A stretch of DNA of 64,000 nucleotides. It comes from Bolinopsis microptera (Eukaryota > Ctenophora > Tentaculata > Lobata > Bolinopsidae). Within the stretch, counting starts at the first letter, position 1. Every line of letters begins with the position of its first letter. Position numbers and translations under genes: made by a program. Location: assembly GCF_026151205.1 (NCBI RefSeq), contig NC_087074.1, positions 2,542,001-2,606,000 on the forward strand, read 5' to 3'. Shown in pieces: positions 12,301 through 52,960 of this stretch. A model generated the notes under the pieces. It saw nothing but the letters and a program-made list of their open reading frames with translations, was not told the origin of the DNA and made no database searches.

Positions 12301-15300
12301 CGTGAGGTATAGCCCACGTGACTTAAACACAACCAGCGTGACGTGAGGTATAGCCCACGTGACTTAAACACAACCAGCGTGACGTGAGGTATAGCCCACG
12401 TGACTTAAACACAACCAGCGTGACGTGAGGTAAGTGGAGAGGATGATCATTTAGTCGACCAGTTTATATATCAGTTTGAGATTTTAAGTCAGTATATTTG
12501 CAACTTCTCTGAACGGCAAACCATCTAGTGTGACTTAACTTCAGAACATGTCCGTCAAAAGTGGAAGCATTATCTTACTGACGCTTATCCAGCTCATTGG
12601 AAGTGCAGAAATAGGAGGTAAGCTTGAAAGGGATTTACAATGTACATTAACCCATGTAAATATATTATTTAGGGCTCATTATTAAGGTACTTTTCACGGC
12701 ATCAGATAAGTTTAATAACTGATTTTTGAAGTTGAGGGGTTTTGTTGTCCATAGGCCTGCAGTTTATGGACCTTTTATCAAGAATTTAATAATAATAATA
12801 ATTATAACTCGTGCAAGTCCGAAATGGGCCGTGTGCTGCTTCTAGGAAGTACATATGACAGTGCATATCAGCACACTGTTGGCTTTCTTAGAGACCTGAT
12901 GAGAACCAAGCGGAAATCATGATTGCCTGGTAAGCAAGTTCACACTCATTCCGAATGGCGGTAGACTTTACAGCTACACTGCAGCTTACACTGTAGTGGG
13001 AATCGCGTCACTGATATCCTCCGAGCATAATTACCAGAATAAATCCTGTACCAATCACAGCTTGGTGACCTGGCCTGCCTGCCTCAGACGGGGTTTGAAC
13101 CCCGGTCTTCCGCTTGGGAGGCGAGTGAATTACCACTACACCACCCGGCCGACAAAAAAGAGAAGAATTTGAACGGAGAAATGTATTCACATCATAAGTA
13201 TATAATATATCGGCTATTATACGATTTATCCTTCAGATGAAGATCAATGTCCTGCTTCCCATCCCAACGTCTACCACGAAGGATATGGATGTTGTAAATT
13301 TGATACCACGTGTCACGGCAGGGTGATTCAGAGAAACAGTTCGTGCTGCGCGGGAAACCAATACATGCCATGTCCCAGTGGAACCTGTCACAACTACCAA
13401 GGAATTAAGCCAGGTGGGTGATTTTTGATTTGGATGATTGACGTATCAGTGTCAACGCCTGAAGCAACATATGAATTATGAGTGCAGCAAAATTTTGCGA
13501 AAAGGGCGACCCCGCACTTGCCTAAAATTCCTTTTTGAGGTGGCAAATTTGGCGAATAGTGCGGCTCGAGTCATACTCAACTTTAACTTAGATATCGGAG
13601 AGTCTAACTGGTAAAAACTCGATCCGCGAAGCGAAGAATAAAACTGCCATCCCACGTGATCTGTGAAACAGATTTTTAAGAAGGCTCCTTCAACTCTTCA
13701 AGTGACTGAGACACCAGACACCACCATAAGGGGTATAGTATGATATTATGAGGTAACTAAGTATCGGCTGATGATGACGGATATTTCACGACATCTTTAT
13801 TATTATTACCAGGAAGATCCGGTCGGGAGGTACTAATTCAATAATTGCACCAATAATGTCCAATAATTAGTAATTAGTTACAACATACAATCAACTGTTA
13901 GTTTTACCCCCGCCCCTTGAGGAATCTCTTTTTTAAGGACAGTTTTACCAGGAAAAAAGGACAACTCACCTCCGATATGTCCCTAATAGTTCTGACAGCC
14001 CTCCTTCGGATATCCATCTCGTTGCTCGTATCTCCGATTATAGCAACAATTTGTGGCAGAAGAAGGTGTAGGTAGTTATCTAGCGTCGTCCCGAAGTTTT
14101 TCAGTTGCCCCAGGAGGCGTTTAGTAGCTTCTCGACCGAGTGATTGGTCGTCATGCAACACCTAAAAAATCATACAAACATTTTCAGAAGGGTTAAGTAA
14201 ATTTTAGAAACAGCGAGACGACCGATAATTTGGATACATCATCAATACTGTCCTGAAAATAAGAGGTATTTGAGAGGACAGTCTTCAAAATTAGGAATCA
14301 TTAAGAATTTATTTACCTTCATGATAAGTGGAATGAGTTGAGCGATGTAAGTTTTGAACTCTCCGCCCAACGCATTTATCAGTCTTTCTACCACCATCAT
14401 TATAGTATTTTGAAAGGGTGTATCGCTATCAGATCCCTTATTCCAGAAGTCTATTATCAGCTTGATAATGTCATTAGCATATGGTTTTATATGGATACCA
14501 ACAATCTGAGGATTAAAGAAAAATTAGATGTATTGAATTGGGAAAGAAACGTTTGCTTAAACTGCATAGTATTCAGAGCGCCAACGTATATGGAACAAAA
14601 TTTGTACTAGAATTTAAAATTGTATGTTTAAGTTAAGAAGCTCACATATCAACATTACCTTGGTCAAGTCAGCGAGTTTGTTGAAGTAGGAATCTACAAC
14701 TTTAGGTTCTGAAGTTTTGACGTTCTCGAGGAAAGTTGGCATCACTTTTGGGAGATATCCAACTGTGCCAACACTACCAAGTCTCTGAAAGTTTGTAATC
14801 GCATTAACTAGCGAAATACTAAATACCAAATCTATCAGTTAATGAATCATTCTATGGATTTTCTAAAATTACATAAAATTCCAACAAATCCTGAAATAAA
14901 GTGATAACCTGAAAGACAGTTATAATGATCTGCACGACTTGAGAATGGTACTCGTTCAAGGACTTGTCCTGCAGTATGTTCATCAGAGCGTGGATAACCA
15001 CGCAGGGATAATATTGTTTCTCCATGTTGAAATCCTTGTCTGACTGTTTCTGTATCAGCAGCTCACTGGGGAAAGGTCAAATGTCGGGATCATTTTGCAA
15101 ACTCAACTTAAATATACGTGTAGACATACAAACGTGGTGGTACCATATTATATTGGGGGGGGGGGGGGGGGCATTGGCCAACCATATTATATTATCTGTA
15201 TTCCCACTTGGGCCTCTATCAGGGCTTTAGAAGAAATTTTACAACAGTTTTGCAACTGTATGAAGTAAGAATAACCACTTCTTTGCACTATTAGCCGGAT

Positions 15301-18300
15301 GTGAGAAATTCGTACCTGGTCAGTCCAGTATTAAATGAAACTGCCTCCATGGGAACTGGCTGAGTGATTGGGAACTTTCTTAGCTCGTTTAAATTAACTT
15401 TGTTGTTTTTGTAAGGACTGAGGGCGCCCAGTTGGCCCAATAGTCTCATACAGTCACCTCTGAAATATTCAACTATTACACTTATGAGAGGAAACAAAAA
15501 CAGTAAAGCACAGCTATCAGCTACATAATGTTATTTCAATATTTGGTTGATAAATTATCTGTCACAGATTTGAACAATATTACCTGACGTCAGCAGAGTT
15601 CTCGGTGCTGATAATGTTGAGAAGTGTGTTGAGTAACTCTGGGTATTCTTGGTAAGGTTTCACGACGTATCCAGTATGTCGGACAAGGTAATACATTGCT
15701 CTTAGAGACGGCTGAAAATAAGGAAATTACAATCCACATTCCATGATTTAACATAAACACTGAAATAGTACCAGAGGAAGAGGTAATGTTGCATTTGCCA
15801 TGAACGATATTCTTTCAATCCCCATAGTCAGGCACTATCGGCCTTATTTGATCCCAAAAATTGAGTTATCTCAGACTACGATATACCTCTCTTTCTTTCA
15901 GGTCTGAAATCCTCTTGATGAGGAAGGGGAAGAGCTCGTCAAGATATGTCATCATGGTTGCTCCGTCCACCTACATGAAGCACGGATGTTACAGAAATCG
16001 GAGGAAGACAAATTGTAATTTCACGTGGCGCGCGTCAAATGCGCGTCTGTGCTGCGCCGATGGGGCTACAAATTACAGCTTTTCCCTGAATTTTGTAGTG
16101 GATTTTGTAGTGGATTTTGCGCGCCGCACGTACTTAACAATATTTATCATTGTAGAATCTACGAGTCGTAGAGTCGTAGTACGACGGTAGCAGTCAGAAG
16201 TCTCAATAAACTGCTCGTACTTATACTTTTAAAGACACTTATAAGATATGAAAATCTAAGTAACACATCCACCCCACTCAGGCCGCCCATCCCAAATAGC
16301 TTGAAATCTGTGACAAATCCCTAAAAATCCAGAATGAGAATCTTTACCCCTGGGCCCTGAAGGGGATTTGTGTTGCTGAGTATTTGAAATATGTTTGGTG
16401 GTTAAATAGGTAGTACATATCCCTAACGATCACAAAGACCAAGTTTTAAGCTCTTGAACCACTCAAGCCACTCACAGAGTTGGCCAATCCAAAAATGACT
16501 GAAATTCTGGTAAAATCCAGATCGAGAATCTTTACCCCTGTAGTGCTTTTATGATCCGGGGTAGGTGGGACATGTTATAGTTTTAAAATGGGTTCTACCT
16601 GCCCAAAAACATCAAAAATAAGTTTGACCAAATGGGGGGATAGGGGGGGGGGGAAAAATTACAATGAAAAACCAGTTTAAAATTTTATGTAGGTTTTTAG
16701 GTTGGGGGGTGGGAAGTTTTATTTAAAAAGGGTTTTTCGTAAAAATTAAAAATTTTTTGATTAAAAAAAAAAATTTAAATTAAAATAGTAAAATAATTTA
16801 AAATTTTTTCCCCCGTAGGCTTTTGTTCCGGGGTAGGGGGAAATGTTTTATTTAAAAAGGGTTCTACCTCCCCAAAACCATATAAAAAAAAAAGTTTCGC
16901 CTCTAACCACTAGGCCACTCCCGGGGGCCACCCCCATCCCAAAATTCCCGAAATACAGTAAAATCCAGATTTTTAAAATCTTTCCCCCTGTAGTGCTTTA
17001 TGTTCCGGGGGTGGGTGGGACATGTTTTATTTTTAAAAATGGGTTTACCTGCCCCAAAACCATCATAAAAATAAAGTTTCGCCCTCTCAACCCACTCAGG
17101 CCACTCCCAGGGGCCACGCCCATCCCAAAATTACCGAAATCCAGCTAAAATCCAGACTTTAAAATCTTTACCCCTGTAGTGCTTTTATGTTCCGGGGTAG
17201 GTGGGACATGTTTTAGTTTAAAAATGGGTTCTACCTGTCCCAAACCATCATAAAAATCAAGTTTCGACCTCTCAACCCACTCAGGCCACTCCCAGGGGCC
17301 ACGCCCATCCCAAAATTACCGAAATACAGCTAAAATCCAGACTTTAAAATCTTTACCCCTGTAGTGCTTTTATGTTCCGGGGTAGGTGGGACATGTTTTA
17401 GTTTAAAAATGGGTTCTACCTGTCCCCAAACCATCATAAAAATCAAGTTTCGACCTCTCAACCCACTCAGACCACTCCCAGGGGCCACGCCCATCCCAAA
17501 ATTACCGAAATCCAGCTAAAATCCAGACTTTAAAATCTTTACCCCTGTAGTGCTTTTATGTTCCGGGGTAGGTGGGACATGTTTTAGTTTAAAAATGGGT
17601 TCTACCTGTCCCAAACCATCATAAAAATCAAGTTTCGACCTCTCAACCCACTCGGGCCACTCCCAGGGCCCCGCCCATCCCAAAATATCCGAAATCCAGC
17701 TAAAATCCAGACTTTAAAATCTTTACCCCTGTAGTGCTTTTATGTTCCGGGGTAGGTGGGACATGTTTTAGTTTAAAAATGGGTTCTACCTGTCCCAAAC
17801 CATCATAAAAATCAAGTTTCGACCTCTCAACCCACTCAGGCCACTCCCAGGGGCCACGCCCATCCCAAAATTACCGAAATCCAGCTAAAATCCAGACTTT
17901 AAAATCTTTACCCCTGTAGTGCTTTTATGTTCCGGGGTAGGTGGGACATGTTTTAGTTTAAAAATGGGTTCTACCTGTCCCAAACCATCATAAAAATCAA
18001 GTTTCGACCTCTCAACCCACTCAGGCCACTCCCAGGGGCCACGCCCATCCCAAAATTACCGAAATCCAGCTAAAATCCAGACTTTAAAATCTTTACCCCT
18101 GTAGTGCTTTTATGTTCCGGGGTAGGTGGGACATGTTTTAGTTTAAAAATGGGTTCTACCTGTCCAAAACCATCATAAAAATCAAGTTTCGACCTCTCAA
18201 CCCCACTCAGGCCACTCCCAGGGGCCACGCCCATCCCAAAATTACCGAAATCCAGCTAAAATCCAGACTTTAAAATCTTTACCCCTGTAGTGCTTTTATG

Positions 18301-21300
18301 TTCCGGGGTAGGTGGGACATGTTTTAGTTTAAAAATGGGTTCTACCTGTCCCAAACCATCATAAAAATCAAGTTTCGACCTCTCAACCCACTCAGGCCAC
18401 TCCCAGGGGCCACGCCCATCCCAAAATTACCGAAATCCAGCTAAAATCCAGACTTTAAAATCTTTACCCCGTAGTGCTTTTATGTTCCGGGGTAGGTGGG
18501 ACATGTTTTAGTTTAAAAATGGGTTTCTACCTGTCCCAAACCATCATAAAAATCAAGTTTCGACCTCTCAAACCCACTCAGGCCACTCCCAGGGGCCACG
18601 CCCATCCCAAAATTACCGAAATCCAGCTAAAATCCAGACTTTAAAATCTTTACCCCTGTAGTGCTTTTATGTTCCGGGGTAGGTGGGACATGTTTTAGTT
18701 TAAAAATGGGTTCTACCTGTCCCAAACCATCATAAAAATCAAGTTTCGACCTCTCAACCCACTCAGGCCACTCCCAGGGGCCACGCCCATCCCAAAATTA
18801 CCGAAATCCAGCTAAAATCCAGACTTTCAAATCTTTACCCCCTGTAGTGCTTTTATGTTCCGGGGTAGGTGGGACATGTTTTAGTTTAAAAATGGGTTCT
18901 ACCTGTCCCAAACCATCATAAAAATCAAGTTTCGACCTCTCAACCCACTCAGGCCACTCCCAGGGGCCACGCCCATCCCAAAATTACCGAAATCCAGCTA
19001 AAATCCAGACTTTAAAATCTTTACCCCTGTAGTGCTTTTATGTTCCGGGGTAGGTGGGACATGTTTTAGTTTAAAAAAATGGGTTCTACCTGTCCCAAAC
19101 CATCATAAAAATCAAGTTTCGACCTCTCAACCCACTCAGGCCACTCCCAGGGGCCACGCCCATCCCAAAATTACCGAAATCCAGCTAAAATCCAGACTTT
19201 AAAATCTTTACCCCTGTAGTGCTTTTATGTTCCGGGGTAGGTGGGACATGTTTTAGTTTAAAAATGGGTTCTACCTGTCCCAAACCATCATAAAAATCAA
19301 GTTTCGACCTCTCAACCCACTCAGGCCACTCCCAGGGGCCACGCCCATCCCAAAATTACCGAAAGTACAGCTAAAATCCAGACTTTAAAATCTTTACCCC
19401 TGTAGTGCTTTTATGTTCCGGGGTAGGTGGGACATGTTTTAGTTTAAAAATGGTTTCTACCTGTCCAAACCATCATAAAAATCAAGTTTCGACCTCTCAA
19501 CCCACTCAGGGCCACTCCCAGGGGCCACGCCCATCCCAAAATTACCGAAATCCAGCTAAAATCCAGACTTTAAAATCTTTACCCCCTGTAGTGCTTTATG
19601 TTCGGGGTAGGTGGGACATGTTTTAGTTTAAAAATGGGTTCTACCTGTCCCAAACCATCATAAAAATCAAGTTTCGACCTCTCAACCCACTCAGGCCACT
19701 CCCAGGGGCCACGCCCATCCCAAAATTACCGAAATCCAGCTAAAATCCAGACTTTAAAATCTTTACCCCTGTAGTGCTTTTATGTTCCGGGGTAGGTGGG
19801 ACATGTTTAGTTTAAAAATGGGTTCTACCTGTCCCAAACCATCATAAAAATCAAGTTTCGACCTCTCAACCCACTCAGGCCACTCCCAGGGGCCACGCCC
19901 ATCCCAAAATTACCGAAATCCAGCTAAAATCCAGACTTTAAAATCTTTACCCCCGTAGTGCTTTTATGTTCCGGGGTAGGTGGGACATGTTTTAGTTTTA
20001 AAAATGGGTTCTACCTGTCCCAACCATCATAAAAATCAAGTTTCGACCTCTCAACCCACCTCAGGCCACTCCCAGGGGCCACGCCCATCCCAAAATTACC
20101 GAAATCCAGCTAAAATCCAGACTTTAAAATCTTTACCCCTGTAGTGCTTTTATGTTCCGGGGTAGGTGGGACATTGTTTTAGTTTAAAAAATGGGTTCTA
20201 CCTGTCCCAAACCATCATAAAAATCAAGTTTCGACCTCTCAACCCACTCAGGCCACTCCCAGGGGCCACGCCCATCCCAAAATTACCGAAATACAGCTAA
20301 AATCCAGACTTTAAAATCTTTACCCCCTGTAGTGCTTTTATGTTCCGGGGTAGGTGGGACATGTTTTAGTTTAAAAATGGGTTCTACCTGTCCCAAACCA
20401 TCATAAAAATCAAGTTTCGACCTCTCAACCCACTCAGGCCACTCCAGGGGCCACGCCCATCCCAAAATTACCGAAATCCAGCTAAAATCCAGACTTTAAA
20501 ATCTTTACCCCTGTAGTGCTTTTATGTTCCGGGGTAGGTGGGACATGTTTAAGTTTAAAAATGGGTTCTACCTGTCCCAAACCATCATAAAAATCAAGTT
20601 TCGACCTCTCAACCCACTCAGGCCACTCCCAGGGGCCACGCCCATCCCAAAATTACCGAAATCCAGCTAAAATCCAGACTTTAAAATCTTTACCCCTGTA
20701 GTGCTTTTATGTTCCGGGGTAGGTAGGACATGTTTTAGTTTAAAAATGGGTTCTACATGTCCCAAACCATCATAAAAATCAAGTTTCGACCTCTCAATCC
20801 ACTCAGGCCACTCCCAGGGCCAACGCCCATCCCAAAATTACCCGAAATCCAGCTAAAATCCAGACTTTAAAAATCTTTACCCCCTGTAGTGCTTTTATGT
20901 TCCGGGGTAGGTGGGACATGTTTTAGTTAAAAATGGGTTCTACCTGTCCCAAACCATCATAAAAATCAAGTTTCGACCTCTCAACCCCACTCAGGCCACT
21001 CCCAGGGCGCCACGCCCATCCCAAAATTACCGAAATCCAGCTAAAATCCAGACTTTAAAATCTTTACCCCTGTAGTGCTTTTATGTTCGGGGTAGGTGGA
21101 CATGTTTTAGTTTTAAAATGGGTTCTACCTGTCCCAAACCATCATAAAAATCCAAGTTTCGACCTCTCAACCCACTCAGGCCACTCCCAGGGGCCACGCC
21201 CATCCAAAATACCGAAATCCAGCAAAAATCCAGACTTTAAAATCTTACCCCTGTAGTGCTTTTATGTTCCGGGGTAGGTGGGACATGTTTTAGTTTTAAA

Positions 21301-24300
21301 ATGGGTTCTACCTGTCCCAAACCATCATAAAAATCAAGTTTCGACCTCTCAACCCACTCTGACCACTCCCAGGGGCCACGCCCATCCCAAAATTACCGAA
21401 ATCCAGCAAAATCCAGACTTTAAAATCTTTACCCCTGTAGTTGCTTTTTATGTTCCGGGGTAGGTGGGACATGTTTTAGTTTAAAAAATGGGTTCTACCT
21501 GTCCCTAAACCATCATAAAAATGAAGTTTCGACCCTTCAAACCCACTCACATCCACGATATTCCACAACCTCTCAACCCACTCACATCCACAACCTTCCG
21601 AATGTAGGTACGGACTTCAAAAACCGAAAAATATATTTTCGGCTCAGAATGATCAGGGTTGCATGAAACATGAACAAAAGTAATTTCCAGAAAAACTTTG
21701 AAAACATTTGAAAATTTTTGACTTTTCGGTCCGAGTCATTCTTGATACGTACCTCTAAAAGCAGAGCTACCGCTTCCGAGCTCGTATTGCGAAGGGGAGG
21801 CCTGCCTCCCGAGATCGCATTACAAAGGGGACTCTTGAGTCCAAAATCGTATATCGAAAGGGTAGGTGCGGTCTTCGAAAACCGAAAAAAATATTTTTGG
21901 CTCATAATGAAACATGAATAAAAGTAGTTTCCAGAAAAACTTTTTTTAAATTTTGACTTAGAAAATTTTAGTCCGAGTCATTCTCGATACGTACCTCTGA
22001 AAGCAGAGCTCCCGCTTCCGAGCTCGTATTGCGAACGGGAGGCATGCCTTCCGAGATCGCATTACAAAGGGGACCCTCGAGTCCAAAATCGTATATCGAA
22101 CTTCGAAAACCGAAAAAAATATTTTTGGCTCAGAATGATCAGGATAGCATGAAACATGAACAAAAGTAGTTTCCAGAAAAACTTTGAAAAATTTTGACTT
22201 AGAAAATTTTCGGTCCGAGTCATTCTCGATACGTACCTCTAAAAGCAGAGCTACCGCTTCCGAGCTCGTATTGCGAACGGGAGGCCTGCCTTCCGAGATC
22301 GCATTACAAAGGGGACCCTCGAGTCCAAAATCGTATATCGAACTTCGAAAACCGAAAAAAATATTTTGGCTCAGAATGATCAGGATAGCATGAAACATGA
22401 ACAAAAGTAGTTTCCAGAAAAACTTTGAAAAATTTGACTTAGAAAATTTTCGGTCCGAGTCATTCTCGATACGTACCTCTAAAAGCAGAGCTACCGCTTC
22501 CGAGCTCGTATTGCGAACGGGAGGCCCTGCCTTCCGAGATCGCATTACAAAGGGGGACCCTCGAGTCCAAAATCGTATATCGAACTTCGAAAACCGAAAA
22601 AAAATATTTTTGGCTCAGAATGATCAGGATAGCATGAAACATGAACAAAAGTAGTTTCCAGAAAAACTTTGAAAAATTTTGACTTAGAAAATTTTCGGTC
22701 CGAGTCATTCTCGATACGTACCTCTAAAAGCAGAGCTACCGCTTCCGAGCTCGTATTGCGAACGGGAGGCCTGCCTTCCGAGATCGCATTACAAAGGGGA
22801 CCCTCGAGTCCAAAATCGTATATCGAACTTCGAAAACCGAAAAAAATATTTTTGGCTCAGAATGATCAGGATAGCATAAAACATGAACAAAAGTAGTTTC
22901 CAGAAAAACTTTGAAAAATTGTGACTTAGAAAATTTTCGGTCCGAGTCATTCTCGATACGTACCTCTGAAAGACTACGCCCATATAATAATAAATCACCT
23001 ATATTGTGCTTTCCGGACATGCTAGACGCCCATTTATTTCAGATTACTGCAGATAATTAATTGTTGCATCTGATCTGAAAAATTGAGCCCAAACGTATTT
23101 GAAATGACGAAGTTATCAAGCATTTAATGTATCTCGTTAACAAAATTGATAGGGTGATTATGTGATAGGTCACCTTAATTGGGTTCCCTTGCAATTTGAC
23201 GGGGCCATCTAATCACCTGAACAGGTAATCGAATCACCTGATCACACGTAATGGATAAACTCGTCATGCCTCGTATCTCGGTCATCTGAGAAGCTACAAC
23301 CCTCATTTTTTCAGATCAAACGTAATTTGAATGGCCAAATACGATCCTATAAATTTGGCTCGATCTGATTATCAAAACTATCGAATAAATGCGATCATGA
23401 ACCTTCATAAAAAAAATGAAAATGAATATTCTTGAAAAAATGAAAATGAATCTATTCCTCGCATGAGTGGTGTTAGTAAGTCATACCAAAAAGAATACCC
23501 CGGAACATAAATCCCTTCCAGGTGTTAAGATTCTCATTCTGTCTGGATTTGATTTTACCCCGGAACATAAAACCTGGATTTCAGTAATTTTGGGATGGGC
23601 GTGGCCCCTGGGAGTGGCCCGAGTGGGTTGAGAGGTCGAAACTTGATTTTTATGATGGTTTGGGACAGGCAGAACCCATTTTTAAACTAAAACATGTCCC
23701 ACCTACCCCGGAACATAAAAGCACTACAGGGGTAAAGATTTTAAAGTCTGGATTTTAGCTGGATTTCGGTCATTTTGGGATGGGCGTGGCCCCTGGGAGT
23801 GGCCCGAGTGGTTAGAGAGGTCGAAACTTGATTTTTATGATGGTTTGGGACAGGTAGAACCCATTTTTAAACTAAAACATGTCCCACCTACCCCGGAACA
23901 TAAAAGCACTACAGGGGTAAAGATTTTAAAGTCTGGATTTAGCTGGATTTCGGTAATTTTGGGATGGGCGTGGCCCCTGGGAGTGGCCCGAGTGGGTTGA
24001 GAGGTCGAACTTGATTATTATGATGGTTTGGGACAGGCAGAACCCATTTTTAAACTAAAACATGTCCCACCTACCCCGGAACATAAAAGCACTACAGGGG
24101 TAAAGATTTTAAAGTCTGGATTTAGCTGGATTTCGGTCATTTTGGGATGGGCGTGGCCCCTGCGAGTGGCCCGAGTGGGTTGAGAGGTCGAAACTTGATT
24201 TTTATGATGGTTTGGGACAGGCAGAACCCATTTTTAAACTAAAACATGTCCCACCTACCCCGGAACATAAAAGCACTACAGGGGTAAAGATTTTAAAGTC

Positions 24301-27300
24301 TGGATTTTAGCTGGATTTCGGTCATTTTGGGATGAACGTGGCCCCTGGGAGTGGCCCGAGTGGGTTGAGAGGTCGAAACTTGATTTTTATGATGGTTTGG
24401 GACATGTAGAACCCATTTTTAAAGTAAAACATGTCCCACCTACCCCGGAACATAAAAGCACTACAGGGGTAAAGATTTTAAAGTCTGGATTTAGCTGGAT
24501 TTCGGTCATTTTGGGATGGGCGTGGCCCCTGGGAGTGGCCCCGAGTGGGTTGAGAGGTCGAAACTTGATTTTTATGATGGTTTGGGACAGGCAGAACCCA
24601 TTTTTAAACTAAAACATGTCCCACCTACCCCGGAACATAAAAGCACTACAGGGGTAAAGATTTTAAAGTCTGGATTTTAGCTGGATTTCGGTCATTTTGG
24701 GATGGGCGTGGCCCCTGGGAGTTGCCCGAGTGGTTGAGAGGTCGAAACTTGATTTTTATGATGGTTTGGGACAGGCAGAACCCATTTTTAAACTAAAACA
24801 TGTCCCACCTACCCCGGAACATAAAAGCACTACAGGGGTAAAGATTTTAAAGTCTGGATAAATAGCTGGATTTCGGTCATTTTGGGATGGGCGTGGCCCC
24901 TGGGAGTGGCCCGAGTGGGTTGAGAGGTCGAAACTTGATTTTTATGATGGTTTGGGACAGGCAGAACCCATTTTTAAACTAAAACATGTCCCACCTACCC
25001 CGGAACATAAAAGCACTACAGGGGTAAAGATTTTAAAGTCTAGATTTTAGCCGGATTTCGGTAATTTTGGGATGGGCGTGGCCCCTGGGAGTGGCCCCGA
25101 GTGGGTTGAGAGGTCGAAACTTGATTTTTATCATGGTTTGGCACAGACAGAACCAATTTTTAAACTAAAACATGTCCCACCTACCCCGGAACATAAAAGC
25201 ACTACAGGGGTAAAGATTTTAAAGTCTGGATTTTAGCTGGATTTCGGTCATTTTGGGATGGGCGTGGCCCCTGGGAGTGGCCCGAGTGGGTTGAGAGGTC
25301 GAAACATGATTTTTATGATGGTTTGGGACAGGCAAAACCCATTTTTAAACTAAAACATGTCCCACCTACCCCGGAACATAAAAGCACTACAGGGGTAAAG
25401 ATTTTAAAGTCTGGATTTTAGCTGGATTTCGGTCATTTTGGGATGGGCGTGGCCCCTGGGAGTGGCCCGAGTGGGTTGAGAGGTCGAAACTTGATTTTTA
25501 TGATGGTTTGGGACAGGCAGAACCCATTTTTAAACTAAAACATGTCCCACCTACCCCGGAACATAAAGCACTACAGGGGTAAAGATTTTAAAGTCTGGAT
25601 TTAGCTGGATTTCGGTCATTTTGGGATGGGCGTGGCCCCTGGGAGTGGCCCGAGTGGGTTGAGAGGTCGAAACTTGATTTTTATGATGGTTTGGGGACAG
25701 GCAGAACCCATTTTTAAACTAAAACATGTCCCACCTACCCCGGAACATAAAAGCACTACAGGGGTAAAGATTTTAAAGTCTGGATTTAGCTGGATTTCGG
25801 TCATTTTGGGATGGGCGTGGCCCCTGGGAGTGGCCCGAGTGGGTTGAGAGGTCGAAACTTGATTTTTATGATGGTTTGGGACAGGCAGAACCCATTTTTA
25901 AACTAAAACATGTCCCACCTACCCCGGAACATAAAAGCACTACAGGGGTAAAGATTTTAAAGTCTGGATTTAGCTGGATTTCGGTCATTTTGGGATGGGC
26001 GTGGCCCCTGGGAGTGGCCCGAGTGGGTTGAGAGGTCGAAACTTGATTTTTATGATGGTTTGGGACAGGCAGAACCCATTTTTAAACTAAAACATGTCCC
26101 ACCTACCCCGGAACATAAAAGCACTACAGGGGTAAAGATTTTAAAGTCTGGATTTAGCTGGATTTCGGTCATTTTGGGGATGGGCGTGGCCCGGCCCTGG
26201 GAGTGGCCCGAGTGGGTTGAGAGGTCGAAACTTGATTTTTATGATGGTTTGGGACAGGCAGAACCCATTTTTAAACTAAAACATGTCCCACCTACCCCGG
26301 AACATAAAAGCACTACAGGGGTAAAGATTTTAAAGTCTGGATTTAGCTGGATTTCGGTCATTTTGGGATGGGCGTGGCCCCTGGGAGTGGCCCGAGTGGG
26401 TTGAGAGGTCGAAACTTGATTTTTATGATGGTTTGGGACAGGCAGAACCCATTTTTAAACTAAAACATGTCCCACCTACCCCGGAACATAAAAGCACTAC
26501 AGGGGTAAAGATTTTAAAGTCTGGATTTAGCTGGATTTCGGTCATTTTGGGATGGGCGTGGCCCCTGGGAGTGGCCCGAGTGGGTTGAGAGGTCGAAACT
26601 TGATTTTTATGATGGTTTGGGACAGGCAGAACCCATTTTTAAACTAAAACATGTCCCACCTACCCCGGAACATAAAAGCACTACAGGGGTAAAGATTTTA
26701 AAGTCTGGATTTTAGCTGGATTTCGGTCATTTTGGGATGGGCGTGGCCCCTGGGAGTGGCCCGAGTGGTTTGAGAGGTCGAAACTTGATTTTTATGATGG
26801 TTTGGGACAGGTAGAACCCATTTTTAAACTAAAACATGTCCCACCTACCCCGGAACATAAAAGCACTACAGGGGTAAAGATTTTAAAGTCTGGATTTAGC
26901 TGGATTTCGGTCATTTTGGGATGGGCGTGGCCCCTGGGAGTGGCCCGAGTGGGTTGAGAGGTCGAAACTTGATTTTTATGATGGTTTGGGACAGGCAGAA
27001 CCCATTTTTAAACTAAAACATGTCCCACCTACTCCGGAACATAAAAGCACTACAGGGGTAAAGATTTTAAAGTCTGGATTTAGCTGGATTTCGGTCATTT
27101 TGGGATGGGCGTGGCCCCTGGGAGTGGCCCGAGTGGGTTGAGAGGTCGAAACTTGATTTTTATGATGGTTTGGGACAGGCAGAACCCATTTTTAAACTAA
27201 AACATGTCCCACCTACCCCGGAACATAAAAGCACTACAGGGGTAAAGATTTTAAAGTCTGGATTTTAGCTGGATTTCGGTCATTTTGGGATGGGCGTGGC

Positions 27301-30300
27301 CCCTGGGAGTGGCCCGAGTGGGTTGAGAGGTCGAAACTTGATTTTTATGATGGTTTGGGACAGGCAGAACCCATTTTTAAACTAAAACATGTCCCACCTA
27401 CCCCGGAACATAAAAGCACTACAGGGGTAAAGATTTTAAAGTCTGGATTTAGCTGGATTTCGGTCATTTTGGGATGGGCGTGGCCCCTGGGAGTGGCCCG
27501 AGTGGGTTGAGAGGTCGAAACTTGATTTTTATGATGGTTTGGGACAGGCAGAACCCATTTTTAAACTAAAACATGTCCCACCTACCCCGGAACATAAAAG
27601 CACTACAGGGGTAAAGATTTTAAAGTCTGGATTTAGCTGGATTTCGGTCATTTTGGGATGGGCGTGGCCCCTGGGAGTGGCCCGAGTGGGTTGAGAGGTC
27701 GAAACTTGATTTTTATGATGGTTTGGGACAGGCAGAACCCATTTTTAAACTAAAACATGTCCCACCTACCCCGGAACATAAAAGCACTACAGGGGTAAAG
27801 ATTTTAAAGTCTGGATTTAGCTGGATTTCGGTCATTTTGGGATGGGCGTGGCCCCTGGGAGTGGCCCGAGTGGGTTGAGAGGTCGAAACTTGATTTTTAT
27901 GATGGTTTGGGACAGGCAGAACCCATTTTTAAACTAAAACATGTCCCACCTACCCCGGAACATAAAAGCACTACAGGGGTAAAGATTTTAAAGTCTAGAT
28001 TTTAGCCGGATTTCGGTAATTTTGGGATGGGCGTGGCCCCTGGGAGTGGCCCGAGTGGGTTGAGAGGTCGAAACTTGATTTTTATGATGGTTTGGGACAG
28101 GCAGAACCCATTTTTAAACTAAAACATGTCCCACCTACTCCGGAACATAAAAGCACTACAGGGGTAAAGATTTTAAAGTCTGGATTTAGCTGGATTTCGG
28201 TCATTTTGGGATGGGCGTGGCCCCTGGGAGTGGCCCGAGTGGGTTGAGAGGTCGAAACTTGATTTTTATGATGGTTTGGGACAGGCAGAACCCATTTTTA
28301 AACTAAAACATGTCCCACCTACCCCGGAACATAAAAGCACTACAGGGGTAAAGATTTTAAAGTCTGGATTTTAGCTGGATTTCGGTCATTTTGGGATGGG
28401 CGTGGCCCCTGGGAGTGGCCCGAGTGGGTTGAGAGGTCGAAACTTGATTTTTATGATGGTTTGGGACAGGCAGAACCCATTTTTAAACTAAAACATTTCC
28501 CACCTACCCCGGAACATAAAAGCACTACAGGGGTAAAGATTTTAAAGTCTGGATTTAGCTGGATTTCGGTCATTTTGGGATGGGCGTGGCCCCTGGGAGT
28601 GGCCCGAGTGGGTTGAGAGGTCGAAACTTGATTTTTATGATGGTTTGGGACAGGCAGAACCCATTTTTAAACTAAAACATGTCCCACCTACCCCGGAACA
28701 TAAAAGCACTACAGGGGTAAAGATTTTAAAGTCTGGATTTAGCTGGATTTCGGTCATTTTGGGATGGGCGTGGCCCCTGGGAGTGGCCCGAGTGGGTTGA
28801 GAGGTCGAAACTTGATTTTTATGATGGTTTGGGACAGGCAGAACCCATTTTTAAACTAAAACATGTCCCACCTACCCCGGAACATAAAAGCACTACAGGG
28901 GTAAAGATTTTAAAGTCTGGATTTAGCTGGATTTCGGTCATTTTGGGATGGGCGTGGCCCCTGGGAGTGGCCCGAGTGGGTTGAGAGGTCGAAACTTGAT
29001 TTTTATGATGGTTTGGGACAGGCAGAACCCATTTTTAAACTAAAACATGTCCCACCTACCCCGGAACATAAAAGCACTACAGGGGTAAAGATTTTAAAGT
29101 CTGGATTTTAGCTGGATTTCGGTCATTTTGGGATGGGCGTGGCCCCTGGGAGTGGCCCGAGTGGGTTGAGAGGTCGAAACTTGATTTTTATGATGGTTTG
29201 GGACAGGCAGAACCCATTTTTAAACTAAAACATGTCCCACCTACCCCGGAACATAAAAGCACTACAGGGGTAAAGATTTTAAAGTCTGGATTTAGCTGGA
29301 TTTCGGTCATTTTGGGATGGGCGTGGCCCCTGGGAGTGGCCCGAGTGGGTTGAGAGGTCGAAACTTGATTTTTATGATGGTTTGGGACAGGCAGAACCCA
29401 TTTTTAAACTAAAACATGTCCCACCTACCCCGGAACATAAAAGCACTACAGGGGTAAAGATTTTAAAGTCTGGATTTAGCTGGATTTCGGTCATTTTGGG
29501 ATGGGCGTGGCCCCTGGGAGTGGCCCGAGTGGGTTGAGAGGTCGAAACTTGATTTTTATGATGGTTTGGGACAGGCAGAACCCATTTTTAAACTAAAACA
29601 TGTCCCACCTACCCCGGAACATAAAAGCACTACAGGGGTAAAGATTTTAAAGTCTGGATTTAGCTGGATTTCGGTCATTTTGGGATGGGCGTGGCCCCTG
29701 GGAGTGGCCCGAGTGGGTTGAGAGGTCGAAACTTGATTTTTATGATGGTTTGGGACAGGCAGAACCCATTTTTAAACTAAAACATGTCCCACCTACCCCG
29801 GAACATAAAAGCACTACAGGGGTAAAGATTTTAAAGTCTGGATTTAGCTGGATTTCGGTCATTTTGGGATGGGCGTGGCCCCTGGGAGTGGCCCGAGTGG
29901 GTTGAGAGGTCGAAACTTGATTTTTATGATGGTTTGGGACAGGCAGAACCCATTTTTAAACTAAAACATGTCCCACCTACCCCGGAACATAAAAGCACTA
30001 CAGGGGTAAAGATTTTAAAGTCTGGATTTAGCTGGATTTCGGTCATTTTGGGATGGGCGTGGCCCCTGGGAGTGGCCCGAGTGGGTTGAGAGGTCGAAAC
30101 TTGATTTTTATGATGGTTTGGGACAGGCAGAACCCATTTTTAAACTAAAACATGTCCCACCTACCCCGGAACATAAAAGCACTACAGGGGTAAAGATTTT
30201 AAAGTCTGGATTTAGCTGGATTTCGGTCATTTTGGGATGGGCGTGGCCCCTGGGAGTGGCCCGAGTGGGTTGAGAGGTCGAAACTTGATTTTTATGATGG

Positions 30301-33300
30301 TTTGGGACAGGCAGAACCCATTTTTAAACTAAAACATGTCCCACCTACCCCGGAACATAAAAGCACTACAGGGGTAAAGATTTTAAAGTCTGGATTTAGC
30401 TGGATTTCGGTCATTTTGGGATGGGCGTGGCCCCTGGGAGTGGCCCGAGTGGGTTGAGAGGTCGAAACTTGATTTTTATGATGGTTTGGGACAGGCAGAA
30501 CCCATTTTTAAACTAAAACATGTCCCACCTACCCCGGAACATAAAAGCACTACAGGGGTAAAGATTTTAAAGTCTGGATTTTAGCTGGATTTCGGTCATT
30601 TTGGGATGGGCGTGGCCCCTGGGAGTGGCCCGAGTGGGTTGAGAGGTCGAAACTTGATTTTTATGATGGTTTGGGACAGGCAGAACCCATTTTTAAACTA
30701 AAACATGTCCCACCTACCCCGGAACATAAAAGCACTACAGGGGTGAAAAGCACTACAAATCCACTACAAAAATCAAGGAAACGTGCTCTCATCGAAGACC
30801 TTTTTGCGGATAGCCATGATTAGTTTATTACGTATTCATGTTGTTGATAATATTATTATAATATAGTGTGTGAAATCGAACCACGAGAAATTAATCGAAA
30901 TATACCAAAGTTTACCTCAGCAAGTTGACTGATGCAGCCCAAAATATGTCTAAACAGCGAGGAAGATAGTTCAGGGCTCTTCAACTAAAAATAAAGAGTA
31001 TACGGGTTATTTTAAATAATAATAAACATGGATTTAGGATTACAACCCGGTCATTGAAAAGCTTAAATTTCTATCGTGAAATATGGAAAGAAGCAAATAT
31101 AGGTGCAAACTGCAAACCATGGAGTAAAAAAAAAGAACTAAAGAAATTTAAGATACGTGTAATTTGACACTACCTTTGGCATGAGTATTGACATAATCGG
31201 CTTGAGATAAAGTCGCACTAAAGTCGGTTGGGCGCTCTTTATTAGAATGTGAAGGAGTTTGGCTGCTTTCTCTTTGTTACGAGCTGAAAAGAAAGGTAAT
31301 AATAGGCAAGCACACCATAACGTTAGTAACTATTGTGTGCACTCAGCACTGTTCCGGTAATCACGTCCCCATCTGCAACATCTTAAAACGAGATAAGAAG
31401 TACAACTCTTACCAATGCCACTGTGTTCGAACTGATGGAGTATGTGACTGAGCTGTTCTCTCAGGAAGGGGAGGATGTAGGCAGGGTTCTCGTCGCTCAA
31501 GTGTCCCAGAAGTTCCAGTACCACTTCCCGGACGTCGTGGGAGGGGTCGTTAACAGCCAGGAATAGCATCTGGGACAAGTTCGTCAGGTGACTTGATGAC
31601 GATTTAACTTTTAAGTAGCTCAACGATTTAGACTTAATCAATCTATTTTCAAAACTAAAGGGAGTTCAAGAAGTGCTATTATATACAGCAGTCAACTGAA
31701 TGCTATTAATAATTCAGATTTCAGAGGCTATTTTGGACTATTTAAGTATATTCATCAACAACGATCCGTATTCTTTGAGTTCAAAGGTAGCCCGTAGCAC
31801 CCTAAAGATGAACGTCAATATGAATTTGGGGTCAAATTACTGAACAAGACAAAGATAGCCTATATGCTCAACATATCCCAAAATCACGCTCACCTGAATA
31901 TTTTCTGACAGAGCCAACTGTTTGTGAAAGTCGGTGTTAAATTCTCTGAGGGTAGCGAGTCTGATTTCAGCAAGAGGGTCAGCTACAACGACCGCCAGAA
32001 GTTTAGTCAGAACGTCCGTCATCATGGTATGTGGAGAGTAGACACGTGCACCCACCAGGTTCACACCAGCATTAGTCGCCCTGATAAGATACTGTTAAGA
32101 CTGGGGGACGCAAAAAAACAGAGCAGTCCAGATTAATAAATTTTCGATATAATACTTTGGAATCAGTAGTTGTTCTGACAGCAACCCTGATATTATGTCG
32201 ACACATGATTGTGGGCACTCTGACTGCTTTAGATAGTTGGTCGAAAAGCAATTTAGCCCACTTTAGCTCAAACAGAATTTGGTAGCATTTCACTCCTTAT
32301 AAAAAATCGGTTAACCAAAAACTCAACCAATAAGCTTTTATGACTTCCTAAACAATTGATTACAGTAAACAGTAAGCAAACAAATACTCACTTGACGCAA
32401 GGGACAAGTTTTCTGGCACAAGTTTTAGCAGTTTCTCGTCGGATCTCAAAGTTTGGGTCGTTGAGATACTCTTTAGCCAGATGGGTTATAAACGCTGTAA
32501 GACAGAGAATTTAACATTTTGCAAAAAGATTTTGATCGAAGAATATCAATTTATAAAATCATACTTAATATTAGGGATGTTTTATTGAAAATGCCCATAT
32601 AAGGATATAACTCCACTCACGTTTAAGGAGTTTGTCATCAAATTTGAATTCCCCGATTGTTCTAATAGCCAGTAGTTTACTCTGGACATCAGTAGGAGCA
32701 AACCAGTCCATGGGCTCTGGGTACGGTTTATCTTCTTTGATGTACGGCAGGTTCATGATTATACGAGAGAATATGTTCAGGAGACCATCTGAAAACATGT
32801 TACTTTAGTGATTTAGTTAACCAGAAATGGAAATTAAAATTGAAATTTAGGCATTAATATCAAGCTCAAGGACATTCAAAACTAATTTAATTGGGATGAC
32901 TTATGTAACAAAGAACTTATTATTTTAATGTTAGATTCACCCACCCTGGATCTTGTTTTTAACAGCAGGAACATTAGCATGAAGTACAGCCAGACAATCA
33001 GTGAGCGCTTTAGTCAGAGTCATCCACAGCATTCCATCAATACAGTCACATATTGATATGTGGAACTTGTCCCTGGTTGCTTTAGCTAGGAGTGATATGA
33101 GTTGCAACACGTTTCCTTCTACCTGGGTGTTGATGCTACGTCTGTATCTGATGGTGAAGAGGTGGAGGTTACACCTTTTAAATAGTAACTTTAAAAGAGG
33201 TAAATATACTTGTTCGCAAATATAATAAGTGGGAATCTTTGGACGAAGTTAGGAAAACAGTGAAACTAGCACATACTTGGCAAGCTCGAGAGGGTTAGGA

Positions 33301-36255: not shown

Positions 36256-39200
36256 TCAGGACAATGAAGTCTCCAACCAATCGAAATGAGGCTGGGGCAC
36301 GCTGGCCACCTGGTTCCGCTTTTTAACCAAGTTGGTTACAAACTCAATACACTTCCGTACATCTCTCATGATCTGTTCGAGGGCCACATTGTCCAACTCC
36401 TCAGCATCCAGCACACGTCTGAACTTTATACCCTTGCTAAGAGCATGTCTGATAGCACCCAAACAAGATGAATATTCCGGAGTAAGGAGACAGTACTCTT
36501 CCATAATATTACAGTACTTTTTATGAATCTGCACGTACTCATCAAGTTCCAGCGCTTTGTCCAGTTCACGGCGCATGTCAGCACCGGTACAATGCAGCAC
36601 CCTCTGCATTGTGTACGCCTGGATCACCTTGATAAAGTTAATAAGCTCGTACCTAAAACAGTGTACCTGGTTTGAGAGCGGGTGTTGCAAGTTAGACTGC
36701 ACCACCAGAGGTAACACACACCACGCTGTGTACTTTATCTGCAGCAACAGTGTGAAAACCTTCTGATAGATAACCAGCAGTTCGTTATCTAACACAATGT
36801 CAACAGGAAATGGCGGCAAATAGTCCACTTTAACACACTGGAACATGTCCAACTCGCTGGTGGTTTGTTTGGTAGGGTTCTGTTGTTTGACCACACCCAT
36901 TCTCAAGTGGTTGGAGTAGTTGGTGAAGGGGGACATGCACTCCCTCAAGAACGGTGTCATCCCTCGTAACGTCTCACCCGTGTAGACGTCTTTGAACATT
37001 TCTTCGCAGAATGTGGACATGGGGAGGCCAGCTTCCATCAGCAGGACTTTTCTAAGGGTGTTAAGATGGTCGTCCAGGTGGAAGTCGTGTCTGAGTATTT
37101 TGAGGAGAGAGAATGAAACTTGTGTGCAGCGTTTCTCCATCAGAGGGACTAGGATCTTCAGGATTGATGTAGATGGAAGGATGTGTAGTTTGCCTATAGT
37201 GTTGAAAATCTCGCTGTAAATTGGGACCTCTTCTTTTTGGGGAGATAAACTCATTGCCATGTCCACGAACAGTGATGTCAGCAAACGGTCACTCTGACAC
37301 TGATCAACATTACCTAACTCAAACGGGATGAGAGTCGTTTGGGGAACCTCTGGGGCTGAGCTTAACAGGGATTTACCGAGATACTTCTTGATGAATACGT
37401 GGAAAAGATCCGCGTCTGGATCACCAAGTTTTCCTAACTTACTGATTAGCTCGATCGCTTTTCCTGCCTTTAACAACTTTTCCCTTAACGGTAAAAATAT
37501 GCCTGGAATCTGGCTGTCAGGACCTAAATCATTATCCTTGAAGACAAGGCCACTTTCCCAGAACTCTGTAGAAGAAATGGATATATCAGGGTCACGTGTT
37601 AAGAACAGTTCGTCGGTGGTGTTGTTGAGATCCCCGTGCGAGAGCCAAGTGTCGATGGTGGTGAGGAGCGGTTGTAAAGTACAGAGGAATACTGTTAGCA
37701 GTACCTGTCAAGGATGGTGACTCAATTAGTTACAGCAAATCGGTGGAAGAGGGTGTAATGTAAATAACGAGTTATTTTGGGTACAGAATATTTGGTAAAA
37801 CCCCAGGGGATTATTCTTTTTCTAAACATAAACAAAGATGATTTAATTAATAAGGTACTAATTATTGCAATAGACTGATATCGTGTCAGAGAACAATTAA
37901 TAATTTGATCTAAGGAACCTTGGTAACATGTTGTGACAGAATGCCCATACTCTCATACAACTCCAGTGTATTGAACAAAATGTTGATGAGTCGGGTTACA
38001 CACACACTCGGACTATCCAAGTCTATATCATGCAGGATCTCTTCTACCTGAATTGTTATTATTATTCTACCTTACATTGTTTAATAAAATACGGAGTTGG
38101 AAGATTTCTCACAGTTGACCGATGCTGATCACTTGATTACACGTCACAGTATGGAAAGTTGAGTAAAAGTATGACATCATGAATAGAGTATGACGTCATA
38201 TAAAGAGGGAGCTCACGTACCATGTCGTAAAGAGCGCTGACTATCTCACACTGGCCCCTGATACATTCCTTTAGTTGTATTACCGTTACTACATCACTTT
38301 GCCTCATTACCTGAAACCAGAAATACAAGTGAACTTCTGAATTTGAAGAGTTGGTTAAGATTTTGACAGTAACTGAATCATAGACCTCTTTCAATATTGC
38401 TCTAAAGTTATAAAATTAAACATTGCACGAGTTTGAGGTTTTCTAAAACTTAGAATATATCTTTATAATTAAGTTTGATGTTTTACCAACTTACTTTGCG
38501 CTCAATGATAGACATTGCGCTTGTGAGCTGCTGCAAGTACATGAATATAGCGCACGCAAAGGCTTGGTAAGTCCTACTGCCGTAAGGGTGGGAGGGCTGT
38601 GCAACATAGTTCAGCACATCGTCACTCACATAGTGCAGACTTTGCACCTGACAGAATATCCGGGTCATTCCTTTATAACTTCTGTAAAACACATGTCTCA
38701 TTTACGGTAACACGACATCTGTCCGACAGCGACTCTTGTCCGACTCATGTTACCAAAAAAACGACATCTGTCCGAAATTGTGATTTAATTTCAATTAGAG
38801 CTTGTGACGTCACAAGATTACCCGTGAGCTTGAGAAATACGAATGTGATCCGAAAGTCGGAGAGTTGTCGCCCAAAACGACTCCTGTCCGAAACCGCTAA
38901 TTCAGCTGTCGGACAGATGTCGCCCAATCCTCATTTACATATTCTATATAATCTAAATTCTGAAACTCTAAACCTGAAGCTACTCGAAAAGTTTTCAAAG
39001 AAAACTATTCAGGGTAAAGTTTAAGCACAAAGTACAATGAAGTTAGTTGATCTTACCATCTGAATGATGTCGAGGAAGTAGTTGAGGACATTGTATAGTG
39101 CCTCTTGAGAGTAGTGCTGAACTGTTATATCCTCTCTAAGGTACACTTTGTGTTCATCAAAAACGGGGAATATGAAGCTAGTTGGGGCTCCTTGAAGCAT

Positions 39201-44919: not shown

Positions 44920-45095
44920 CACGGACGGACATTGGCGGACTCGGACGGACATTGGCGGACTCGGACGGACATTGGCGGACTCGGACGGACATTGCCGGAC
45001 TTGGACGGACATTGGCGGACTCGGACGGAAATTGGCGGACTTGGATGGACATTGGTGGACATTAGCGGACATTGGTGGACATTAGCGGACAAACA
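44920..45095 (+). repeat. 20-bp tandem repeat (GGACATTGGCGGACTCGGAC)
   Basis: About nine copies, progressively decaying into GGACATTAGCGGACATTGGT and ending in GCGGACAAACATT. The same terminal module occurs at 7925-7985 in the MTOR intron. All long frames here are repeat artefacts. Confidence 0.93.
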
Positions 45096-45099
45096 TTTT

Positions 45100-46645: not shown

Positions 46646-47459
46646 AGGAAGCATCTAAATGTTATTTCCATTTTTGTCCGTTTTTGTCCATTTTTGTCCG
46701 CTCTATTTTTTGTCCGTTTTGAAAATATAGGGTACCGAACGGACAAAAAACATGATCCCCCATAACAGCAAAAATTGAACATTTTATTTAGCAATTTAGG
46801 TGTCCATTGATGTCCGCCTATGTCCGCCTATGCATATGTCCGTCTATGTCCGCCTATGTCCGTCTATGTCCGCCTATGTCCTGTCCTTTTTGGATTCTAT
46901 GAGACAAGCGGACATAGACGGACGTGACACCCCCCCCCCCCCCCCCCAATATAACAGGTAGAATTCGGTGACATTTTTTCGGTCCCAATTTGGACCATTT
47001 TACGGTCTTTAATTTATGAGGCAACTTTAATTTTTCCATTTTGAAGCCTATTTTAATTTAAAGACTTTGCCTTTATAAAAATCGCGTCTTATAAAAACAA
47101 ACTGAGTGTACTGTACAGTATACAACAGTGATGTCCCTCCTAATAATTGTTCTAATGAGGTGTTGGTACAACAAGAAGTAGGAAACAATAAACTTCTAGG
47201 ACAAAGATTAAGGAATCCAGAGGCTTAACAAACATGAAAACAGAAATTGTTGGAACCTTTTTGTCTTGTGGTGTCAAAAAGAGCGGCGTTGTATGGAATA
47301 CATTGTAAATTTTAAGCAGAACTTCATGTAACTGACCTAACTTTAAATTCGAATTTATTAAAACGAAATTTACTTTTATTTAAAGATAAAATGTAACACA
47401 GAATATAACAGTAAAATGAAAATAAGAATAAAAATTCCAAGCTGAAGACTAGATTTATA

Positions 47460-52389: not shown

Positions 52390-52960
52390 CTCGCCGAGCT
52401 GCGATGAATTGACATCGTCAATTAAGGATAATCGGATCGAGCTCAATTTTATTAAATTTTGTTGGGCCATTCGAATTAAGTTTGTCCTGAAAAAATTAGA
52501 ATTGTAGCTTCTCAGATGACCGAGATACGAAAATAACGAGTTTATTGATTACGTGTGATCAGGTGATTGGTTAACCTAATCACGTGATCAGGTGACCCCG
52601 TTAACCACCCCGTTAAACATTTGTCATACGTTGTATGACCCGCCTGTATCGTCAGGACTCAGGACCATAGTGAAACGACCATGGGGGTCACAACGTGATA
52701 CAATTAAACATTACGGGAATCGTAAAGGCTGCCCTATTACGGTGTCGTGTCACGGTGTCGTGTCACGGTGTCACATAATCACCCATTCAATTTTGTTAAC
52801 GAGATACACAAAATGCTTGATGACTTCGTCATTTCTAACCCGTTTTGCCTATTTTTTTCAGATCAGATGCAACATTTAATAATCTACCGTCTCTGAAAAA
52901 TATTAGGCGTCCAGCATGTTCAGAAAGAACAATATAGGTGTTCTAAAATATTCAAAATTT
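52390..52960. repeat. Dispersed repeat, copy 2 (inverse of 22975-23400)
   Basis: Shares GTAGCTTCTCAGATGACCGA, GTGTGATCAGGTGATTGG, TTTTGTTAACGAGATACA, TCAGATCAGATGCAAC and AACAATATAGGTG with copy 1 on the opposite strand. An extra block at about 52610-52740 matches the 48.6-kb repeat in inverse orientation, so one repeat has inserted into the other or been rearranged with it. Confidence 0.75.

What the first reader, a model, noticed from the sequence alone, without database searches (positions are those of the whole stretch)
15971..30915. Giant satellite palindrome inside an MTOR intron
About 28 units of a 185-bp satellite face about 39 inverted units across a 1.9-kb spacer, filling a 14.9-kb intron of an essential gene. 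Inverted arrays of over 5 kb are prone to hairpin extrusion and recombination, and transcripts through this intron would form kilobases of double-stranded RNA.
Basis: partly seen in the sequence, partly recalled or inferred. Interest (0 to 1): 0.75.

Follow-up and report, generated by a model that had tools for sequence, protein, structure and literature searches.

The report
Giant foldback transposon with satellite arms
The huge inverted satellite array in this TOR intron is one copy of a family of apparently non-coding mobile DNA elements, scattered over the genome, whose two ends have grown into facing arrays of a 185-base repeat.

Summary
In detail: 27 units (+) face 39 units (-) of a 184/185-bp repeat across 2.0 kb and fill nearly all of a 14,945-bp TOR intron. 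It is one copy of a dispersed foldback-type DNA transposon family. Order: end B (short TIR plus ~240 bp), 185-bp array, 242-bp array, ~590-bp core, inverted 185-bp array, end A (short TIR). 54 facing end pairs were found (308 bp to 20.8 kb). Of 34 usable pairs examined, 24 (1.3-19.7 kb) have an exact 8-bp target-site duplication; mismatched pairings give 1 of 1,260. The window copy has end A intact, lacks the outer 9 bp of end B and shows no duplication. No transposase was found; superfamily open. Fourteen related short elements differ in length by roughly one unit. The unit shares a 12-bp motif with the end-A TIR, and one motif base agrees between TIR and unit in the five subfamilies seen. 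Inference: the arms are extended TIRs with extra transposase sites. Closest known: Tetris of Drosophila virilis, with much shorter TIRs. Hairpin, dsRNA and instability claims are untested. The host is probably a lobate ctenophore (inference).

The parts
15971..30915 (-). TOR intron that holds the element
   Evidence: GT donor and AG acceptor; sequence; TOR exons
16081..30790 (.). the foldback element (14,710 bp); end B on the left, end A on the right
   Evidence: end A 0-mismatch match at C3:2572761-2572789; end B from position 10 of 252 at 100% identity
16081..16323 (+). end B: TIR remnant (outer 9 bp missing) plus subterminal region
   Evidence: C3:2558081-2558323, 100% over positions 10-252
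16324..21549 (+). B arm: 27 units of the 185-bp repeat; the three outermost full units are diverged (71, 83, 91% to the A-arm consensus)
16630..16960 (+). stretch of the B arm with many single-base losses and homopolymer runs; looks like poorly polished consensus
   Evidence: sequence; inference
21604..22972 (+). second tandem array, 242-bp unit, in the spacer
   Evidence: matching spacer sequence in other elements
22973..23566 (+). core, ~590 bp; no long open frame
23567..30747 (-). A arm: 39 units of the 184-bp repeat, 99.1% alike on average
30748..30790 (-). end A: TIR starting GAGAGCACGTTTCC, reads leftwards into the A arm
30791..30798 (+). ATCGAAGA, where the right copy of a target-site duplication would lie; no left copy next to end B
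   Evidence: sequence

Best explanation
It is a non-autonomous foldback-type DNA transposon, inserted in a TOR intron, whose two terminal regions have grown into long facing arrays of a ~185-bp module. Shown: it belongs to a family with defined ends, a recurring internal order, many insertion sites and, at most examined sites, 8-bp target-site duplications. Inferred: a cut-and-paste transposase supplied in trans recognises the TIRs; the module arose from sequence carrying a TIR-like motif, so each unit may offer an extra binding site; arrays lengthen and shorten by unequal exchange or replication slippage; the arms stay inverted because each extends its own end. The insert is removed with the intron.
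For: Common ends: end A and end B align at sharp outer edges in many loci, with unrelated flanks outside. Genome-wide the end-A pattern has 89 matches and the end-B pattern 75 (up to 3 mismatches), against 0 for reversed controls. 54 facing A-B pairs, 308 bp to 20.8 kb. TSD: of 36 pairs examined 34 are usable; 24 of 34 have an exact 8-bp duplication; control 1 of 1,260. Same array polarity in 13 of 13 stretches with both. Recent spread: five A arms (window, L012, L014, L026, L028) are 99.3-99.8% alike between elements, while A and B arms of one element agree at 91-98%; window end B is 100% identical to several other loci. The outermost B-arm unit is diverged to 70-74% in 7 of the 8 main-subfamily B arms profiled (93% in the eighth), as if inherited with the element. 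14 short elements measure 426, 427, 610 (x3), 615 (x5), 616 (x2), 794 and 1329 bp. End A and unit share TGTAGTGCTTTT in inward orientation, 0 of 500 shuffles. GTAGT against GTAGG agrees between TIR and prevailing unit in 5 of 5 subfamilies seen.
Against: No autonomous partner: 0 of 150 hAT hits (150 of 365 candidates scored) and 0 of 88 MULE hits lie inside any of 61 end pairs (54, plus 7 from the listed part). KDZ and P-type RNaseH searches gave none, and their controls did not ring either. The window copy has no TSD. 10 of 34 pairs lack an exact 8-bp TSD, among them all three elements under 1 kb that I examined, one from the ladder group. Two further elements of 728 bp do not fit the ladder. 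End B shares only 7 bp with the unit, reached by 153 of 500 shuffles, and end A also shares a 10-mer with the unit in the wrong orientation. One GTAGG unit each occurs in L014 and L028 of the GTAGT subfamily, and 2 of 54 pairs have disagreeing TIRs. Some A arms fit less clearly: L009, L010, L011 and L024 reach only 97-98% to other arms. The most conserved block of the unit is GC-rich, not the TIR motif.
Confidence: 0.88

Rival explanations
1. A locus-specific satellite palindrome made by inverted duplication of a simple array at this intron.
For: Long, homogeneous inverted arrays here; the window copy has no TSD.
Against: The same ends, order and inverted arms recur at many sites, 24 of 34 examined with exact 8-bp TSDs. 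The window A arm is closer to A arms elsewhere (99.3-99.5%) than to the facing B arm (95.8%).
Confidence: 0.04
2. Assembly artefact: two arrays from different loci joined.
For: One stretch of the B arm (16630-16960) looks poorly polished. The assembly that I suspect as source used wtdbg and TGS-Gapcloser (passages of PMC10232365).
Against: The architecture repeats at independent loci with matching TSDs, which random joining would not give. TOR exons stand on both sides.
Confidence: 0.04
3. The arrays expanded after insertion of a short MITE-like copy, independently at each site, and long elements never moved as such.
For: Short elements exist with lengths about one unit apart. Unit numbers differ between copies. 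The window A arm has hints of a 16-unit duplication.
Against: A-arm units differ less between several elements than between the arms of one element, and few variants are confined to the window's array. The large copies share spacer array and core. All three examined elements under 1 kb lack a TSD, whereas most long ones have it.
Confidence: 0.15
4. A Helitron or Helentron carrying satellite arrays, as in bivalves.
For: Those also disperse tandem arrays (title and start of abstract of PMC7492417 in the listing).
Against: Here the ends are inverted repeats and insertion makes an 8-bp duplication; Helitrons lack both (recalled).
Confidence: 0.01

Closest known systems
Tetris (Drosophila virilis, PMC4079207; abstract and the first parts of Results and Discussion read)
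   Same: Foldback form, TIRs with ~220-bp internal tandem repeats, middle domain without apparent coding capacity, 8-10 bp TSDs, non-autonomous, partner unknown, a shorter relative (DAIBAM), a stretch shared by TIR end and repeat. Arrays of up to 66 of its repeats are also known.
   Different: Tetris TIRs reach 1,735 bp and only 3 structurally complete copies were found; its long arrays are described as satDNA-like and as possibly having disrupted the element. Here arms of 5-8 kb lie within elements with intact ends, 24 elements (of all arm sizes) having exact TSDs. Sequence comparison with Tetris was not run.
Galileo (Drosophila, P superfamily, PMC3573991; abstract and passages read)
   Same: Long TIRs with tandem repeats of ~210 bp in one subfamily; repeats said to hold secondary transposase binding sites; unit number differs between the two TIRs of one copy.
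   Different: TIRs up to ~1.26 kb, 7-bp TSD, known P-type transposase; here 8 bp and no P-type RNaseH hit (control silent).
MITEs with internal satellites (Xenopus miDNA4, Xstir; passages of PMC12628747 read)
   Same: Short non-autonomous element with a variable number of internal tandem units.
   Different: In the passages read no facing arrays of multi-kb length are described.

Membership tests
Foldback-type elements | long inverted arms built of tandem sub-repeats around a middle domain | tested here: met
Foldback-type elements | target-site duplication on insertion | tested here: met
   24 of 34 usable pairs; the window copy itself has none
TIR-order DNA transposons | short terminal inverted repeat at both ends | tested here: met
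   ~40 bp, ~86% alike between ends A and B
TIR-order DNA transposons | encodes or is linked to a transposase | tested here: inconclusive
   longest open stretch in 12 spacers 250 aa; family searches
hAT superfamily | 8-bp TSD (recalled) | tested here: met
   not specific to hAT
hAT superfamily | hAT transposase within matching ends | tested here: inconclusive
   150 of 365 candidates scored; 0 of 150 inside 61 pairs
Mutator (MULE) superfamily | TSD of about 9 bp (recalled) and MULE transposase within matching ends | tested here: inconclusive
   TSD exactly 8 bp in 24 pairs and 7 in 2; 0 of 88 MULE hits inside 61 pairs
P superfamily (Galileo) | P-type transposase in the genome | tested here: inconclusive
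   no hit with PF21787, but the controls did not ring either
Tetris family | sequence homology | not tested
   Tetris sequence was not fetched
Classical (centromeric) satellite | large arrays without element ends | tested here: not met
   dispersed copies with ends

The most novel reading that the evidence does not exclude
A transposon family in which the terminal binding region itself has become a satellite: arrays of dozens of transposase-site modules per end, kept inverted by the logic of transposition, giving 10-20-kb mobile palindromes that can land in introns of essential genes. In a ctenophore, where loop anchors carry a GC-rich motif, the invariant GC-rich block of each unit could also recruit architectural zinc-finger proteins, so each copy would be a mobile cluster of chromatin sites.
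Probability: 0.15. Interest if true: 0.78.

Novelty: new variant of a known kind. Interest (0 to 1): 0.52.

Why it matters
One genome holds short elements with a few units and giant elements with dozens of units per arm, under related ends. That makes the step from transposon end to satellite array directly testable. It also shows that multi-kilobase near-perfect palindromes stand at many places, one inside a TOR intron, so host tolerance of hairpins and dsRNA can be studied.

Tried and rejected
Satellite as a private feature of this locus: rejected by genome-wide copies. Autonomous partner: hAT, MULE, KDZ and P-type searches gave nothing inside paired ends. The 17.8-kb copy at C10:14.09M looked like a candidate because it leaves the array after about one unit; the DNA there is another repeat with 43 matches including itself (40 of 78 candidates scored), so I take it as a nested insert. 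The unpaired end B at C9:12530258 lies 5.7 kb from a hAT hit; with hundreds of hAT candidates I judge that as expected by chance (estimate, not computed). My first guess for the host was a sea anemone (literature search); dropped for the chromosome number. A STING-based species test gave no match and no control. Unpaired end-B loci L040 and L044 show no stop-free frame over 100 aa in the 1.5 kb seen. The bacterial promoter scan at end B is not meaningful here.

Rows dropped: the rows WINDOW and L009 are invalid (the end-B pattern matched end A), so 36 rows, 34 usable. The ten without an exact 8-bp match: two have 7 bp, one has the 8-mer offset by a base, seven have none. These 34 cover 33 of the 54 pairs plus one other; 21 pairs were not examined, most of them short. 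In one search I used 79 of 89 end-A rows. Of the ten left out by hand, one is an end B, eight begin differently, and one (C8:14188276) was left out though it begins like an A end. All 75 end-B rows were used. Lengths are from coordinates; of the 14 ladder elements one was read (L050).
Full report
OBSERVATION. The inverted arrays are real. TRF finds a 185-bp array at 16797-21549 and a 184-bp array at 23574-30744. Self-alignment widens them to 16324-21549 and 23567-30747, in opposite orientation. A unit profile counts 27 and 39 units of over 70% length. The arms match in reverse complement at 95.7% over ~4.8 kb. The gene is TOR: one exon hits mTOR at 3e-13. A peptide joined across the intron aligns collinearly but weakly, best E 0.042, and Transportin-1 scores about the same.

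NOT A PRIVATE PALINDROME. A 201-bp query from the left edge has 547 matches in the genome, a lower bound (40 of 330 candidates scored). I fetched 20 stretches around such matches, some chosen because hits lay on both strands. Thirteen of 20 show both orientations, and in 13 of 13 the plus array lies left of the minus array; of the other seven, two are continuations of elements already counted. Comparing the sequence outside the arrays gives two end types with sharp outer borders. End A begins GAGAGCACGTTTCCTTGATTTTTGTAGTGG. End B begins CAGAAGACGTTTCCCTGAATTTTGTAGTGG and has over 200 bp more before the array. They are imperfect inverted repeats of each other.

COPY NUMBER AND TARGET SITES. With up to 3 mismatches the end-A pattern matches 89 places and the end-B pattern 75; reversed controls give 0. 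A degenerate 18-mer gives 223 against 3, of which only the first part was listed. From 79 of the end-A and all 75 end-B rows, 54 facing pairs lie within 25 kb, 308 bp to 20.8 kb long, and 46 ends stay unpaired. I examined the flanks of 36 candidate pairs; two rows are invalid. Of 34, 24 have an exact 8-bp duplication, two have 7 bp, one has the 8-mer offset by a base, and seven have none; mismatched pairings give 1 of 1,260. The 24 include elements of 1.3 to 19.7 kb (sizes). One of them, C10:14.09M, contains another repeat next to end A. The three elements under 1 kb that I examined (L050, L051, L052) all lack the duplication. This identifies a DNA transposon family with 8-bp target duplication, with the short forms still to be checked.

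THE WINDOW COPY. End A is intact at 30790. End B matches other loci at 100% from position 10 inward, so its outer 9 bp are missing, and the 8-mer right of end A is not next to end B. It has lost one tip, or there is an assembly fault there. Part of the left arm (16630-16960) reads like poorly polished sequence.

ANATOMY. Spacers of the fetched elements share a 242-bp array and a ~590-bp core (its output was cut at 150 rows); in the window the core lies next to the A arm. The core has 65 matches, in elements of this and other subfamilies and at places without paired ends; only 39 of 1,508 candidates were scored. In 12 spacers the longest open stretch is 250 aa; in the window the longest (218 aa) lies over the 242-bp repeats. 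I take the elements to be non-coding.

EVOLUTION OF THE ARMS. Five A arms (window, L012, L014, L026, L028) are 99.3-99.8% alike between elements; other A arms reach 97-99% to their nearest. A and B arms of one element agree at 91-98%. The A-arm and B-arm consensus differ at four positions, though none is fixed. The outermost B unit is diverged to 70-74% in 7 of the 8 B arms of the main subfamily that were profiled; the eighth is 93%. So arms seem inherited as built rather than homogenised across the palindrome. In the window's A arm, units 8 and 24 share two variants that are rare elsewhere, and units 2 and 18 share one rare and one common variant. This hints at a duplication at a distance of 16 units; one rare variant shared by units 19 and 25 does not fit it. 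A related group of 14 short elements has lengths 426, 427, 610 (x3), 615 (x5), 616 (x2), 794 and 1329 bp, steps of roughly one unit; two of 728 bp with a slightly different TIR do not fit. The one that was read (L050) has end A, about two units in one orientation, and end B. Short and giant forms therefore look like a series; direction and order are inferred.

MECHANISM. Shown: ends, duplications, dispersal, structure. Inferred: mobilisation in trans by an unseen transposase, and unit arrays as extra binding sites. For the latter: end A and the unit share TGTAGTGCTTTT in the same inward orientation (0 of 500 shuffles reach 12). In the five subfamilies read, GTAGT in the TIR goes with GTAGT in the prevailing unit, and GTAGG with GTAGG. 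Against: end B shares only 7 bp (153 of 500 shuffles); end A also shares a 10-mer with the unit in the opposite orientation. L014 and L028 each hold one GTAGG unit, and 2 of 54 pairs have one GTAGT and one GTAGG TIR. The subfamilies are related, so few independent changes are needed. The most conserved part of the unit is another, GC-rich block. For Galileo, repeats in the TIR are reported to contain secondary binding sites (passages of PMC3573991; Discussion of PMC4079207).

SUPERFAMILY. 0 of 150 hAT hits (150 of 365 candidates scored) and 0 of 88 MULE hits lie inside any of 61 pairs. KDZ and P-type RNaseH gave none, without working controls. I leave it open.

HOST. Twelve contigs of 15-26 Mb have known lengths, and C9 has places up to 17.4 Mb: 13 large contigs, at least 97.5% of the 264.7 Mb by my sum. 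Ctenophores of three studied species have n = 13 (passages). The Bolinopsis microptera assembly has 13 chromosome-scale scaffolds with 97.23% of bases, an estimated 254-Mb genome, and was made with wtdbg and TGS-Gapcloser (passages). Mnemiopsis leidyi is 248 Mb (passages). I infer a lobate ctenophore, perhaps B. microptera; no sequence test was made. In M. leidyi over 75% of loop anchors carry a GC-rich motif bound by CTEP1 and CTEP2 (section read). Its letters did not appear in the text that I saw, so a link to the GC-rich block of the unit is only a lead.

KNOWN OR NEW. Of the literature searches made, Tetris was the closest listed; no listed title or abstract start describes such elements in a ctenophore. 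The library holds open PMC papers only. Foldback elements with tandem sub-repeats are a known kind. The arm size within elements that keep their ends, the number of copies with clean duplications and the graded series make this a new variant.

CLAIMS NOT SUPPORTED. Nothing here shows hairpin extrusion, excess recombination, dsRNA or an effect on TOR.

Noticed in passing
window 52312-52940, 8059-9057, 41011-41169: Pieces of the element's core (82-84% identity) and of its 242-bp repeat (76-97%) lie elsewhere in the window, where no 185-bp unit was found, so these modules also occur apart from the element.
   Followed up: partly
G000:C2:11382811-11389490 and C2:11519536-11520093: Two elements about 137 kb apart have the same flanking sequence, one 6.7 kb and one 559 bp long: perhaps a duplicated or haplotypic region with one copy internally deleted.
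   Followed up: no
G000:C5:13629707-13630449: Three end-B tips stand in tandem, 325 bp apart, at the end of one element.
   Followed up: no
   Followed up: partly
window 45134-46649: 1.5 kb of purine-rich GGA-type repeats with strong strand skew (GC skew 0.62 at 45001-46000).
   Followed up: no
window 11898-12432: 13 copies of a 41-bp repeat, 97% matches.
   Followed up: no
window 3091-3804 (+) and 36256-37707 (-): Neighbour genes: an ORF with a TMC domain (Pfam E 2.6e-8) and a gamma-tubulin complex component (E 3.4e-25).
   Followed up: yes
185-bp unit, block CCACTCAGGCCACTCCCAGGGGCCACGCC: This GC-rich block is invariant in the five unit versions aligned (four subfamilies), more so than the TIR-like motif; a possible protein site of unknown role.
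   Followed up: partly
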